A stretch of 64,000 nucleotides of DNA. Origin: Chryseobacterium camelliae. Its GTDB lineage: Bacteria > Bacteroidota > Bacteroidia > Flavobacteriales > Weeksellaceae. The stretch lies in NCBI RefSeq assembly GCF_002770595.1, contig NZ_CP022986.1, forward strand, positions 4,278,001 through 4,342,000, read 5' to 3'. Positions 2,580-6,357 of the stretch are shown in pieces. The notes beneath the pieces are model-generated. The model made no database searches. It was not told the origin of the DNA and saw nothing but the letters and a program-made list of their open reading frames with translations. The stretch's first letter is position 1. Each line of letters starts with the position of its first letter. The translations under genes were made by a program, and so were the position numbers.

Positions 2580-2607
2580 CAAAACTTATTGATCAAGACA
2601 ATAAAAT

Positions 2608-2632
2608 AAAACCATCAAATTTTGGTGGTTTT
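2608..2632. terminator. bidirectional terminator between ppc and the accessory island
   Basis: An 11-bp stem (AAAACCATCAA with TTGGTGGTTTT, one G-T pair) with a T-rich tail on both strands. It can end ppc from the left and the small secreted-protein gene from the right. A closely similar hairpin occurs at 3982-4006 behind the paralogous gene, so gene and terminator appear to have been duplicated together. Confidence 0.75.
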
Positions 2633-2650
2633 ATTTTTAATGTTTTAAAA

Positions 2651-3052
2651 TCATCGATATACAATTATATCTTTCACTATTTTACTTCCATAAAATGTTT
2701 TTTCTTCATTGGTAAAATAGAAAGCATTTTTTTGTTCATAAAATTGTGTTTGGTCTCTTGGTATCGGATCTTGCCATTTTATCAATAAAGTCACTGTACG
2801 ACGAAAGCTTAGTTCTTTTTCAGCGAATTTAAACCTTGTGTCGGCTGATATTGTTTTTTTTCTCCCCATTGATGCTGCCCATGCCGTTTTTGGCTGTATT
2901 TGTGTCATTTCATTTAGAAGTTTTGAAAAAGGTTGACCGATATAATTTGCTTTATTGAATTCGAATTGTTTTAAATAATTCAAAGTATCTAATTGAGCAT
3001 TTATTTTGCTAATGCCAACTGTTAATATGAATAGAGTAATTATATTTTTCAT
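2651..3052 (-). CDS. small secreted hypothetical protein, paralogue A
   Basis: A 133-residue protein of unknown function with a clear signal peptide ending ...KINAQ. It is a close paralogue of the 136-residue product at 4023-4433: long stretches such as LDTLNYLKQFE, YIGQPFSKLLNEMTQIQPKTAW and YGSKIVKDII are the same or nearly so, with most differences in the middle. It is the last gene of a minus-strand run that begins with the lipoprotein at 5831. Its position behind a lipoprotein with an exchangeable tail makes an accessory or immunity-like role possible, but nothing in the sequence proves this. Confidence 0.8.
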   Translation of the reverse strand: MKNIITLFILTVGISKINAQLDTLNYLKQFEFNKANYIGQPFSKLLNEMTQIQPKTAWAASMGRKKTISADTRFKFAEKELSFRRTVTLLIKWQDPIPRDQTQFYEQKNAFYFTNEEKTFYGSKIVKDIIVYR

Positions 3053-3091
3053 AGTTATGCTATTAGAAAACCTCTATGTAGGAGGTTTGTA

Positions 3092-3700
3092 TTATTGCTT
3101 TATCATTGTGAACTCACCTAATGGTAAAGAAAAATTTGCCGGAGGACTTTCAGTTTCTACATTGTAAGTAACGGTATTAGGATTAGCAATTTTAACTTGT
3201 AATACTTGTTGTCCGTTTATAATTGTTCTTCTCATAAGAAAATCAGCATATCGGCTGGTTAATTTATCTGTAATGACTAACCTTATTCTTTTTTCATTTA
3301 TATTGCATTGTGGACATTTCCATAAACGGGAATTATTTCCCAAAATACTATTCCCAGCAATGCCATGTTTTAAAAACTGATCAGAATAAGATATATTCAA
3401 ATTAGAAAAGGTATTTACTTTCTCAGTTCCATTTAGAATATATTGATACTCACCGATAATCAAGTCTTCATAATGTGAACCTACTGGTTGCATTATCATC
3501 TTCTTTAACACTATTTTAAAAATATCATTTCCATTAGTATATAAATAAGTTCCTTCAAAAGAATTTAATATATTATCTAAATCCTTTCTATAGTAGCCGC
3601 TAGGTTTTTTGTAACCAGATTTTGTAATGTCTATTATAGCACTATGAGACTTTAGCTGAGTTGAAAATATTAAAATAAATAAAAACAATATATTTTTCAT
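3092..3700 (-). CDS. secreted DUF6705-like protein
   Basis: About 202 residues, reading from the ATG at 3700 (MKNILFLFILIF, signal peptide). An upstream in-frame extension exists but would put the signal sequence in the interior, so it is rejected. The order after the signal peptide (a short KDLDNILNSFEGTY segment, then beta-rich LYTNGNDIFKIVLKK and IGEYQYILNGTEK) resembles small secreted proteins of Chryseobacterium that I recall as DUF6705; this assignment is from memory. A CPQC pair is at about residue 125. Function is unknown. It lies between the orphan tail fragment and paralogue A, with AT-rich composition like both. Confidence 0.7.
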   Translation of the reverse strand: MKNILFLFILIFSTQLKSHSAIIDITKSGYKKPSGYYRKDLDNILNSFEGTYLYTNGNDIFKIVLKKMIMQPVGSHYEDLIIGEYQYILNGTEKVNTFSNLNISYSDQFLKHGIAGNSILGNNSRLWKCPQCNINEKRIRLVITDKLTSRYADFLMRRTIINGQQVLQVKIANPNTVTYNVETESPPANFSLPLGEFTMIKQ

Positions 3701-3731
3701 AAGTTTATTAATTACAATTAATTGTTTGTAC

Positions 3732-3974
3732 TTAAGCATTTGGTGTATTAGATGCAATTTGCAATTTACTAAATCCTGTGAGATCATTATTTGCCTTATA
3801 GAGTCCAACATTAGTTCCAAAATTCATTTGTAGAAAAACACTTTCATAATTCGGATTATCTTTTAGTGACTCCTCATCATATGCTAATTTTAATTGGTCA
3901 TCCATTCTTTTCTTTATTTCTTCATGGGTACACCCAATATTATCAGGGGTATTAAATACATCTTTATCAGGATA
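3732..3974 (-). pseudogene. orphan C-terminal module of a tail-bearing lipoprotein
   Basis: An 80-codon open frame with no start codon near its 5' end; an in-frame stop lies at 3975-3977 and the first ATG is about 25 codons in. It ends in NYESVFLQMNFGTNVGLYKA and DLTGFSKLQIAS, which resembles the C-terminal end I associate with Flavobacteriia proteins that carry a GxHTH...FSxxD domain, the same type as the lipoprotein at 4437. The simplest reading is a displaced 3' end of an alternative C-terminal module left behind by recombination. It starts just past the duplicated terminator hairpin, which marks one edge of the rearrangement. The open frame is seen; the origin is inference. Confidence 0.55.
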
Positions 3975-3981
3975 TTAAAAA

Positions 3982-4006
3982 TAAACCATCAAATTTTGAT
4001 GGTTTA
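3982..4006. terminator. hairpin terminator behind paralogue B
   Basis: A perfect 12-bp stem (TAAACCATCAAA with TTTGATGGTTTA, one-base spacer) flanked by A-rich and T-rich runs, so it can act in both directions. It lies just behind the stop codon of the minus-strand gene at 4023-4433 and is a near copy of the hairpin at 2608-2632. Confidence 0.7.
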
Positions 4007-4022
4007 TTTTATCGTTTTAAAA

Positions 4023-4433
4023 TTATCGATATATAATTATATCTTTCACAATTTTGCTTCCATAAAATGCTTTTTCTTCATTGGTGAAATAAAAAGCATT
4101 CTTTTGTTCATAAAATTTTGTTTGGTCTCTTGGTATCGGAGCTTGCCATTTTATTAATAAGGTAATAGCATTATGAAAACTTAAATCGATAGTTGTGAAT
4201 TTAAATCTTGTGTTTGCAGATATATTTTTTTTCCTTTCTGTTGAAATTGACCACGCTGTCTTAGGTTGTATTTGTGTCATTTCATTTAAAAGTTTTGAAA
4301 AAGGTTGACCGATATAATTTGATTTATTGAGTTCGAATTGTTTTAAATAATTCAAAGTATCTAATTGAGCATTTATTTTGCAAATGCCAACTGTTAATAT
4401 GAATAGAGTAATTATTTTTTTTAAATTTTTCAT
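4023..4433 (-). CDS. small secreted hypothetical protein, paralogue B
   Basis: A 136-residue secreted protein (signal peptide ending ...KINAQ), clearly a duplicate of the product at 2651-3052. It starts three bases after the stop codon of the lipoprotein gene at 4437, so the two must be co-transcribed. The central residues (about 65-90) are where the two copies differ most, while both ends are nearly the same. Its direct coupling to the lipoprotein's variable C-terminal half fits a partner or immunity protein for that module, but no domain is recognised and the role is not shown. Confidence 0.8.
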   Translation of the reverse strand: MKNLKKIITLFILTVGICKINAQLDTLNYLKQFELNKSNYIGQPFSKLLNEMTQIQPKTAWSISTERKKNISANTRFKFTTIDLSFHNAITLLIKWQAPIPRDQTKFYEQKNAFYFTNEEKAFYGSKIVKDIIIYR

Positions 4434-4436
4434 TTA

Positions 4437-5831
4437 TTATGGTTTTAGATTACAATCTGTTGTTTGGTTGTACACATATATTGGGATATAAATTCCCCCT
4501 ACATTTATATTTGTTATATTTTCATTTACAAATATAGACTTAAAATTTCCTGAAGAATCTTTTTGGCTTAAACTAGCTCCTACATCATATTTACTTAAAA
4601 TCAATGCCGTTGCATTAGCCATTGCATCGTCTTCTGAAAATCCTTGTCGTTGAAATTGTGTTAATGCGTTTTCAAAACTAACAAATATAGGAGAACTCTC
4701 TTTCCAATGTGATGTAGTCATGTCTAAGTTATTACCAGCAGAATGATTGGCAACAAAATCAGCATACTTTATAGGATCGGTAATAGTTAAAGCATATACA
4801 ATTCCTCCATTTGCAAAGACAAAAAATATATTAAAGCTTGGGTTTATAGTATTTGCACCTTGAAGAGAATAGATATCTCCTGCTGAAAAACAATTAAATA
4901 AATCAGTGGTATGTGTATGCGCTCCTCCTTCAATGGAAAGATTGGGATTATTGGCTTGTAATCCTACTTGATTTCCAGCAGTTGCCGTTTTAATAGGCGT
5001 TGTCTCATAATTTCCATTTGCATCTTTCCCAAATGAAAAAGATTTCTCATTAGTATCTGTACCTAAGGTGCTTGTGAGTTGTGTTTGTGCTAATGCTATT
5101 TTTGTATTATTTAAAAGTGCTTTGGCATTTGTATTATTATTTACTGCTTTTGCGCAAGGATCTTCCGGCTCCGGCTGCGGATCTTCGCCTCCTCCTCCGG
5201 GGTAGGGATAGCCCGGATCATTCCCGCCCCCTCCAAGGCATGTTCCGTCAGGAAGCACTTCACCGACACAGCTCTCCAGCTGCTGGCTCTTGCATTCTGT
5301 CACATGATGCGATTCCCAGTGCCCGGGACCATCAGGATCACTTTCATTATCCGGGTAAAACATTGAAATGGTCTTGGTTGTACAGACTAACTTTCCCGCT
5401 GTATTATCCACAAGAGTCGTCTCTGCCCTTTTGAGCCTGGAGGACATCAGGTTCTGAAAGAATTCCATATCATTCTGTACCTGGGTATAGGTAAAATAAA
5501 CCCTCTGTCCTTTCCTTGGCACATTCAGTACCGCTATAACTTTTCCTTGCTCAGCTACCGGAACCATCAGGAAACTTTCATCAAAGCGGTCCATGGTCAT
5601 CGCATAGTCCCACATCGGTTCACCGGCACCCTTTTTTATTTCTTCATGGTGTTCTGAGTAGACTTTCATGACATTTTTAATATACTTTTCATCTTCTTTC
5701 CAGAGGCTTTTGGAATGGTATTCCTTAGACGCCGGATCGGAAGCCGTATAGATCTCATCATGGACACAGGAAAGCAGTACAAGGCAGAAAGCCATCATAA
5801 AGGCCAGCCACGAAATTAATTTTCTCATCAT
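4437..5831 (-). CDS. lipoprotein with a variable C-terminal HxH...SxxD module
   Basis: A 464-residue outer-surface or periplasmic lipoprotein: signal peptide with lipobox LLSC (acylated Cys22). Residues about 23-200 form an N-terminal part followed by a Gly/Pro-rich linker (about 199-225) and a single cysteine at 226. The gene's base composition changes at that cysteine (near 5156): GC-richer and typical of the chromosome upstream, AT-rich like its downstream neighbours afterwards. The C-terminal half holds GGAHTHT...FSAGD with His305, His307, Ser316 and Asp319, similar to a JAMM/JAB metalloprotease pattern (H-x-H-x7-S-x2-D) but with eight residues in the spacer, and then a FVFANGGIVYALTITD strand pair. 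No function is known. The architecture resembles polymorphic toxin or effector tails, which is inference. Confidence 0.75.
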   Translation of the reverse strand: MMRKLISWLAFMMAFCLVLLSCVHDEIYTASDPASKEYHSKSLWKEDEKYIKNVMKVYSEHHEEIKKGAGEPMWDYAMTMDRFDESFLMVPVAEQGKVIAVLNVPRKGQRVYFTYTQVQNDMEFFQNLMSSRLKRAETTLVDNTAGKLVCTTKTISMFYPDNESDPDGPGHWESHHVTECKSQQLESCVGEVLPDGTCLGGGGNDPGYPYPGGGGEDPQPEPEDPCAKAVNNNTNAKALLNNTKIALAQTQLTSTLGTDTNEKSFSFGKDANGNYETTPIKTATAGNQVGLQANNPNLSIEGGAHTHTTDLFNCFSAGDIYSLQGANTINPSFNIFFVFANGGIVYALTITDPIKYADFVANHSAGNNLDMTTSHWKESSPIFVSFENALTQFQRQGFSEDDAMANATALILSKYDVGASLSQKDSSGNFKSIFVNENITNINVGGIYIPIYVYNQTTDCNLKP

Positions 5832-5852
5832 AAGTTTTGGTTTTTAGTGAGT

Positions 5853-5883
5853 TAAAGATAGATTATTTTCCTTACTCTACAAA
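5853..5883 (-). promoter_or_regulatory. promoter of the lipoprotein island
   Basis: Read on the minus strand: TTTG (plus-strand 5880-5883), 19 bases, then TATCTTTA (5853-5860). This differs from the Bacteroidota consensus only in the last base of the -7 box. It sits 22 bases in front of the lipoprotein ATG at 5831 and would drive the run of minus-strand genes down to 2651 unless transcription stops at the hairpin at 3982. Confidence 0.6.
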
Positions 5884-5976: not shown

Positions 5977-6357
5977 ATGAATGCAACCATTGGAAGAAGA
6001 ATAAGAAAGTATAGAGAAGAAAAAGGATTTTCTCAGGAAGACCTTGCCGGGCAACTCCATATTTCCCGTTCAACGTATCAAAGAATAGAAAATGGTGAAA
6101 CAAATTCATGGGTTAATCATATTGAAAACATTTGTAATTCTCTGGATGTAAATATGGAGGATATTCTTAAGCCAGAAGAGGGCTATACACAAATAAATAA
6201 AGAAAATTCGGCTAATGAAAATTCAAGTAATAATATGATTCAAAATCAAACAAATAATTACAGTTCATCCGAAAAACTCATAGAACAGTATGAAGAGCGC
6301 ATCAAAGAACTGAAAGAACAAGTATCTTATTGGAAAAGCAAAGCAGAAGGTCAGTAG
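5977..6357 (+). CDS. XRE-family helix-turn-helix regulator
   Basis: A 126-residue DNA-binding protein. Residues about 1-60 form a Cro/C1-type helix-turn-helix (IGRRIRKYREEKGFSQEDLA, then HISRSTYQRIENGE), and the Asn/Ser-rich middle leads into a C-terminal coiled coil (EKLIEQYEERIKELKEQVSY) that probably makes a dimer. The ATG at 5977 is chosen because the upstream frame begins with TTG inside the predicted promoter. It is divergent from the lipoprotein island and shares a 145-bp spacer with it, so it is a plausible regulator of that island, although no operator could be picked out by eye. Confidence 0.8.
   Translation: MNATIGRRIRKYREEKGFSQEDLAGQLHISRSTYQRIENGETNSWVNHIENICNSLDVNMEDILKPEEGYTQINKENSANENSSNNMIQNQTNNYSSSEKLIEQYEERIKELKEQVSYWKSKAEGQ

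What the first reader, a model, noticed from the sequence alone, without database searches (positions are those of the whole stretch)
2608..5883. Lipoprotein island that looks like a tail-exchange cassette
One operon holds a lipoprotein with a constant-looking N-terminal part and a C-terminal module with HTH...FSAGD, a small secreted partner three bases downstream, a broken tail of another module, an unrelated secreted gene and a second copy of the small partner with its own terminator. Composition changes sharply at a Pro-rich linker and a single Cys. This is the layout of polymorphic effector systems (head, exchangeable tip, immunity gene, displaced tips), but on a Bacteroidota surface lipoprotein and with a JAMM-like motif instead of a known toxin.
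Basis: partly seen in the sequence, partly recalled or inferred. Interest (0 to 1): 0.72.

Follow-up and report, generated by a model that had tools for sequence, protein, structure and literature searches.

The report
Surface lipoprotein with swappable protease-toxin tips
A Chryseobacterium surface protein carries an exchangeable JAMM-protease tip that travels together with its own exported protector gene, and the window preserves a scar of one tip replacing another, so this looks like a contact weapon with interchangeable warheads that could decide which neighbouring bacteria survive.

Summary
The finding holds, and the evidence goes beyond it. The window's genome (Chryseobacterium) has eight loci with the same kind of tip; six share the 225-residue lipoprotein head (95-96% identical to residue 226 in the four other intact or single-stop copies). 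All homology to the head stops at the Cys226 codon. The rest is a JAMM/JAB domain in which almost only the metal and catalytic residues (E262, H305, H307, D319) and a Cys pair are constant. All 41 full-length heads found carry such a tip, and all 41 differ.

A secreted 130-205 aa gene follows each tip closely and varies with the tip, not the head (Mantel 0.62 against 0.06). The window's tip+partner sits in C. oryctis on another head (head 41%, tip 82%, partner 78%). A related MAG keeps the older state at this locus: an intact tip B, whose last third survives in the window as the 'broken tail'. The 'unrelated secreted gene' (DUF6705) is tip B's partner.

Best reading: a polymorphic toxin-immunity system. 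JAB toxins with a lipoprotein immunity protein were predicted in 2012 on RHS heads. New here are the surface-lipoprotein heads, the single hypervariable fold, a role for DUF6705 and a caught exchange. Toxicity, substrate and delivery are not shown.

The parts
4437..5831 (-). 464-aa lipoprotein: constant head + exchangeable JAMM tip
   Evidence: homology of all own-genome copies ends at the Cys226 codon
5766..5831 (-). signal peptide and lipobox (LLSC, Cys22), followed by V-H-D-E, which resembles the C-X-K-(D/E)2-X lipoprotein export signal
   Evidence: sequence; 47 of 59 heads have at least 2 acidic residues at +2..+5; LES defined in PMC5080379
5157..5765 (-). head (residues 23-225), ending in a Gly/Pro-rich linker (about residues 200-225)
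   Evidence: 93.5-96% nt identity among the five aligned copies in the genome; GC 0.477
4440..5156 (-). tip A (residues 226-464): JAMM/JAB domain bounded by Cys226 and Cys460; Glu262, His305, His307, Asp319 are the JAMM positions
   Evidence: invariant columns of A1/A3; AF2 pTM 0.70; PDB matches nearly all JAMM/MPN, Z up to 8.2
4023..4433 (-). immA, 136-aa secreted partner of tip A (class B), start 3 bases after the tip stop
   Evidence: co-transferred with tip A in C. oryctis (84.9% DNA identity over 5159-4025)
3978..4010 (.). terminator-like hairpin behind immA (palindrome, could serve either strand)
3732..3964 (-). remnant of tip B (3' third of a displaced tip module)
   Evidence: 95% DNA identity to the intact tip B of L061 starting at 3964
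3092..3700 (-). immB, DUF6705 partner of displaced tip B (class A)
   Evidence: Pfam PF20448 3.1e-33; 67% identical to the partner of the same tip in L010
2651..3052 (-). immA', second copy of the class-B partner (83% protein identity)
   Evidence: present at the same place in L061, which lacks tip A
2603..2637 (.). terminator-like hairpin behind immA' (palindrome, could serve either strand)
5977..6357 (+). divergent XRE-type HTH regulator with an EKLIEQYEERIKEL tail
   Evidence: Pfam HTH_3 6e-13; relatives upstream of the head at many other cassette loci

Best explanation
A polymorphic toxin-immunity cassette on a surface lipoprotein. The head is exported by Sec, lipidated at Cys22 and probably flipped to the cell surface (CVHDE resembles a lipoprotein export signal). 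A flexible Gly/Pro linker presents a JAMM metallohydrolase tip closed by Cys226 and Cys460 (disulfide inferred). The tip attacks neighbouring non-kin cells. The small secreted protein encoded right behind it binds and blocks that particular tip in the producer and its kin. New tip+immunity pairs enter by recombination between the linker/Cys226 codon and the end of the immunity gene, cutting the old tip loose and leaving its remnant and its immunity gene downstream as protection. Shown here: modular exchange, tip-partner linkage, displacement at this locus, JAMM motif and fold, exported partners. Inferred: toxicity, inhibition by the partner, surface location, delivery. Because nearly every partner has an export signal and the tip carries an invariant Cys pair, the likeliest target is an envelope (periplasmic or surface) protein cut by the JAMM site, rather than cytoplasmic DNA.
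For: Own genome: head 80-100% identical per block, tips 0-31%, sharp break at Cys226. 41 of 41 full-length heads carry a JAMM-motif tip, all 41 tips distinct. Only C1, E37, H80, H82, D94 and C235 of the tip are (nearly) invariant in 38 tips. AF2 model and PDB comparison give JAMM/MPN proteins almost throughout the list. 84 of 87 tips have a partner gene, nearly all at -47 to +25 bp. Tip-partner Mantel 0.62 against head-partner 0.06; partner class changes once on the tip tree. Swaps across species: window/C. oryctis head 41%, tip 82%, partner 78%; L011/L060 54/92/98; L066/L082 36/86/97. Displacement: L061 keeps intact tip B, immB and immA' beside the same neighbour gene, and 95% identity starts at window 3964. 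Headless tips with partners in L047 and L049, partner arrays of 2-5 genes including ones closest to partners of quite different tips. All 13 DUF6705 genes of the genome lie at tip loci. DUF6705 and tip co-occur in 15 of 395 sampled Bacteroidota genomes (tip 18, DUF6705 17; Fisher 2e-22).
Against: No toxicity, binding or delivery was tested. The tip model is moderate (pLDDT 68) and Z of 7-8 is middling on its own. Four of 38 tips have Ala for the JAMM serine. Classical polymorphic toxins change to unrelated folds, here the fold never changes. Two genomes (G540, G284) have DUF6705 and no tip match. Two of the six close-head cassettes in the genome have interrupted heads. Tips were partly gathered by the HxH..D motif and cut at a Cys, so the constancy of H, H, D and of the first Cys is partly by construction; E37 and C235 are not.
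Confidence: 0.77

Rival explanations
1. The tip is a cytoplasm-directed JAB nuclease, as proposed for Tox-JAB domains in 2012: same polymorphic system, but the toxin enters the target cytoplasm and cuts DNA.
For: Zhang et al. argue that toxin JABs resemble RadC and lack the ubiquitin tunnel (PMC3482391). RadC (2qlc) and DNA deaminases are among the structure matches.
Against: The partners have N-terminal export signals, often with a lipobox-like Cys, so immunity would act outside the cytoplasm; the Cys pair bounding the tip suits an oxidising compartment.
Confidence: 0.12
2. Non-toxic surface variation: a surface lipoprotein whose tip diversifies to escape phages or predators, with a co-evolving secreted partner needed for folding or assembly.
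For: Surface lipoprotein, within-genome repertoire, hypervariable module; a chaperone-like partner would also co-vary.
Against: A chaperone does not explain conserved catalytic residues, partner arrays that exceed the tips, or retention of the partner of a displaced tip.
Confidence: 0.08
3. A surface protease with an ordinary job (processing surface proteins), and the small protein is its substrate or pro-inhibitor.
For: JAMM site conserved; partner adjacent, exported, co-varying.
Against: The modular swap of tip+partner between heads and species, 41 different tips on 41 heads, and displaced-tip remnants are not expected of a housekeeping enzyme.
Confidence: 0.03

Closest known systems
Tox-JAB-1 / Imm65 and Tox-JAB-2 (DUF4329) polymorphic toxins (Zhang et al. 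2012, PMC3482391)
   Same: C-terminal JAB domain as predicted toxin (E, HxH, S, D); Tox-JAB-1 is confined to Bacteroidetes and followed by a lipoprotein immunity protein.
   Different: There the head is RHS repeats. Here it is a 200-residue lipoprotein head; the NxxxE signature of Tox-JAB-1 is not conserved, DUF4329 matches only 3 of 38 tips weakly, and the partners are DUF6705-like or an unnamed class.
SitA/SitI lipoprotein toxins of Myxococcus (PMC5562445, PMC8546572)
   Same: Lipoprotein toxins with constant N-terminal escort domain and polymorphic C-terminus, several per genome, each with an immunity gene.
   Different: SitA tips are nucleases acting in the cytoplasm and are delivered by outer-membrane exchange. 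Here a single metallohydrolase fold with exported immunity; delivery unknown.
APD1/APD2 effectors of Amoebophilus and Microscilla-N toxins (PMC3482391)
   Same: Bacteroidetes proteins with a conserved N-terminal domain (APD: after a lipobox) and variable C-termini.
   Different: APD proteins carry unrelated effector domains aimed at a eukaryotic host and are described as deployed in parallel rather than by tip displacement.
TANFOR polymorphic toxins of Bacteroidetes (PMC7073777)
   Same: Bacteroidetes-specific head, variable toxin tips, downstream immunity gene.
   Different: Different, large head linked to type IX secretion; nucleases and other unrelated tips; no JAB or lipoprotein mentioned in that paper.

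Membership tests
Polymorphic toxin systems | conserved N-terminal trafficking part with variable C-terminal module | tested here: met
Polymorphic toxin systems | adjacent downstream gene specific to the C-terminal module | tested here: met
Polymorphic toxin systems | displaced tips and headless tip cassettes next to the full gene | tested here: met
   window 3732-3964 against L061; headless tips in L047, L049
Polymorphic toxin systems | C-terminal module is toxic and neutralised by the partner | not testable with these tools
   needs expression and competition assays
JAMM/JAB metallohydrolases | Glu, HxH, Ser-x-x-Asp constellation | tested here: met
   E, H, H, D in 38/38; Ser in 34/38, Ala in 4
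JAMM/JAB metallohydrolases | JAMM/MPN fold | tested here: met
   AF2 pTM 0.70; JAMM/MPN proteins fill most of the list, Z up to 8.2, rmsd 3-4.6; model of moderate confidence
Tox-JAB-1 | NxxxE signature before HxH | tested here: not met
   Asn at E-4 in 7 of 38 tips
Tox-JAB-1 | RHS-repeat head | tested here: not met
   short, mostly lipoprotein heads without RHS repeats in the sequences seen
Tox-JAB-2 (DUF4329) | match to PF14220 | tested here: inconclusive
   3 of 38 tips, best E 3e-4, window tip none
Imm65 | membership of the partner in Imm65 | tested here: inconclusive
   Pfam scan gave DUF6705 for 24 of 33 partners and no Imm65; I did not verify that Imm65 is in the library
SitA | nuclease tip with a cytoplasmic target | tested here: not met
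   JAMM tips and exported partners
SitA | delivery by TraA/B outer-membrane exchange | not tested
   TraA/B not searched for

The most novel reading that the evidence does not exclude
A self-standing class of Bacteroidota weapons. Each cell displays a repertoire of surface lipoproteins whose tips are all one JAMM protease fold, diversified everywhere except the catalytic site, that cut different envelope targets of neighbours on contact. Two families of exported immunity proteins (DUF6705 and a second, unnamed one) form strain-specific protection sets, and whole tip-immunity pairs are traded between heads, loci and species.
Probability: 0.4. Interest if true: 0.8.

Novelty: new variant of a known kind. 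Interest (0 to 1): 0.64.

Why it matters
It gives a predicted function to a Pfam family of unknown function (DUF6705: immunity proteins against JAMM-tipped lipoproteins), links surface lipoproteins of Chryseobacterium, Flavobacteriales and other Bacteroidota to interbacterial conflict, and offers a case where a donor-like arrangement (C. oryctis), the pre-exchange state (related MAG) and the post-exchange scar (window) can be compared base by base. Exported immunity plus JAMM tips suggests that toxin JAB domains are envelope proteases, against the nuclease proposal of 2012, and this can be tested directly.

Tried and rejected
Profile search of solved structures by sequence found nothing, so fold comparison was needed. 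Anti-phage defence models: no match for the six proteins scanned. Plasmid and phage collections: no match for the cassette or the tip. A degenerate-pattern search with the tip alignment was impossible because no stretch is conserved enough; heads were used instead. The DUF6705 model is a beta barrel with only weak resemblance to avidin/lipocalin-like barrels (Z at most 6.8), not pressed further. Type VI delivery was considered because the genome has a Bacteroidota TssC, but the lipobox and LES-like head argue for surface display and nothing ties the cassettes to it.
Full report
Observation. The window lies at 4278001-4342000 of a single-contig 4.38 Mb genome. Nearest named records with the same head are all Chryseobacterium. 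On the minus strand the finding consists of a 464-aa lipoprotein (4437-5831), a 136-aa secreted protein three bases behind it (4023-4433), an open remnant (3732-3964), a DUF6705 gene (3092-3700; the mechanical ORF starts further upstream) and a 133-aa copy of the small protein (2651-3052), ending at the phosphoenolpyruvate-carboxylase-like gene 45-2579 (recognised by eye, not tested). Each small-protein copy is followed by a terminator-like hairpin. GC falls from 0.477 in the head to 0.322 in the tip and 0.25-0.29 in the small genes.

Head and tip are separate modules. The genome holds eight tip loci. Six, including the window, share the head (95-96% protein identity over residues 1-226 in the four other intact or single-stop copies; the sixth is an interrupted copy found in two pieces); one has a 43% head and one a different head. 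In alignment with the window protein, blocks before residue 225 are about 80-100% identical and blocks after it 0-31%. DNA identity falls from about 0.9-1.0 to background at the Cys226 codon; every match ends between 5147 and 5163.

The tip is a JAMM/JAB domain. In 38 tips from the genomes, at 14-29% identity to the window tip (85% for the C. oryctis one), the only invariant columns are Cys1, Glu37, His80, His82 and Asp94, with Cys235 at 90% or more, i.e. Cys226, Glu262, His305, His307, Asp319 and Cys460 of the window protein. The JAMM serine is Ser in 34 and Ala in 4. A second set of tips, fetched through another collection (partly the same species), adds Tyr121 and makes Cys235 invariant. 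An AlphaFold2 model of the window tip (21 sequences, pTM 0.70, pLDDT 68) matches JAMM/MPN proteins nearly throughout the list: AMSH/Sst2, Rpn11, PfJAMM1, BRCC36, a bacterial BubCD and RadC, Z 6.8-8.2 (Foldseek). The Z values alone would be middling; the coincidence with the invariant residues makes the assignment firm. Caveat: tips were collected through heads plus an HxH..D motif and cut at the preceding Cys, so constancy of H, H, D and the first Cys is partly by construction; however all 41 full-length head proteins found by head similarity alone carried the motif.

The partner belongs to the tip. Of 87 unique tips, 84 have a secreted protein gene behind them, nearly all at -47 to +25 bp by mechanical start. 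Pairwise similarity of tip and partner correlates (Mantel 0.62, p 0.0005), of head and partner does not (0.06, p 0.27); head and tip correlate weakly (0.28). Partners fall into two classes: A (73, DUF6705-like; 24 of 33 scanned partners match PF20448 at E<=1) and B (10, including the window's immA). On a tip tree the class changes once (shuffled mean 9.6; 0 of 500 as low). All 13 DUF6705 genes in the genome sit at tip loci. Across 395 sampled Bacteroidota genomes 18 have tips, 17 have DUF6705 and 15 both (Fisher 2e-22; 10 of the 15 outside the window's genus). Outside the genus the tips ride on unrelated, mostly lipoprotein-like heads, again commonly ending in a Gly/Pro-rich linker and Cys, and again followed by a secreted gene.

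An exchange caught in the act. L061, from an uncultured Chryseobacterium MAG, is the same chromosomal spot: head end, intact tip B, immB, immA' and the end of the same neighbour gene. Window 3964 to 2500 is 95% identical to it, starting inside tip B. In the window the first part of tip B (roughly 133 of 218 residues) is replaced by tip A and immA. The same tip A+immA pair is found in C. oryctis with 84.9% DNA identity from window 5159 to 4025, that is from the Cys226 codon to the immA stop, behind a head of 41% identity. So the exchanged unit is tip plus partner, the old immunity gene is retained, and immA' exists in the relative that lacks tip A (it may have aided recombination; inference).

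Other polymorphic-toxin traits. Headless tips with their own partner occur in L047 and L049; broken tips in L053, L058, L081 and L085. Partner arrays of 2-5 genes include members closer to the partners of other tips than to the local one (for example L013 second gene 66% to the L096 partner against 37% to its own; L062 third gene 69% against 28%). A divergent XRE regulator with a conserved tail stands upstream of many of the heads examined.

Location. The head has a lipobox and, in 47 of 59 cases, at least two acidic residues at +2 to +5 (C-V-H-D-E here). The Capnocytophaga surface signal is C-X-K-(D/E)2-X, needing a positive or polar residue before two acidic ones (PMC5080379). Surface display is therefore likely but inferred. 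Partners have N-terminal signal sequences, many with a Cys in lipobox-like context (65 of 84 by a loose pattern).

Mechanism. Shown: modularity, linkage, displacement, JAMM site and fold, exported partners (by sequence). Inferred: the tip is a toxin, the partner its inhibitor, delivery is by contact between surfaces, the target lies in the envelope. The last point differs from Zhang et al., who suggested a nuclease for toxin JABs (PMC3482391); exported immunity and the Cys pair speak for the envelope.

Known and new. JAB toxins with immunity partners, including a Bacteroidetes clade with lipoprotein immunity (Tox-JAB-1/Imm65), were predicted in 2012 on RHS heads. Lipoprotein heads with polymorphic tips are known from Myxococcus SitA (PMC5562445, PMC8546572) and Amoebophilus APD proteins. 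No paper in the library mentions DUF6705, and literature searches found no JAMM-tipped lipoprotein system (open-access papers only). The combination is a new variant of a known kind.

Noticed in passing
L013 8593-9885 and L014 9440-10812 (same genome): Two of the six cassettes sharing the window's head have interrupted heads (a stop codon in one, a frame break in the other) while their tips and partner arrays are open.
   Followed up: partly
window 5977-6357 and upstream of heads in L010, L013, L062, L065, L066, L067, L071-L074 and others: A divergent XRE-family regulator with a conserved C-terminal EKLIEQYEERIKEL tail accompanies many cassettes; its role is unknown.
   Followed up: partly
L010 162-5337: A 1407-aa protein with a LysM-like start, PAAR-like (DUF4280-looking) region and lysozyme-like end plus a following lipoprotein, possibly a T6SS effector pair, stands next to one cassette; the genome has a Bacteroidota TssC. 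Recognised by eye only.
   Followed up: no
L015 581-3242: Genes resembling a CD-NTase, a SLATT-domain protein and a further effector, a possible CBASS-like defence locus, lie beside the cassette with the divergent head. Recognised by eye only.
   Followed up: no
L015 8274-10986 and L016 6368-12799: At least six near-identical copies of a 181-aa secreted protein (TTATTTVNITLNDVISIDAGSTAIG...) are scattered near two cassettes.
   Followed up: no
L085 5364-7313: Serial fragments of tip modules after two intact cassettes, an apparent graveyard of displaced tips.
   Followed up: no
L127 (G544): A tip whose partner (187 aa, secreted) belongs to neither partner class; a possible third immunity family.
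   Followed up: no
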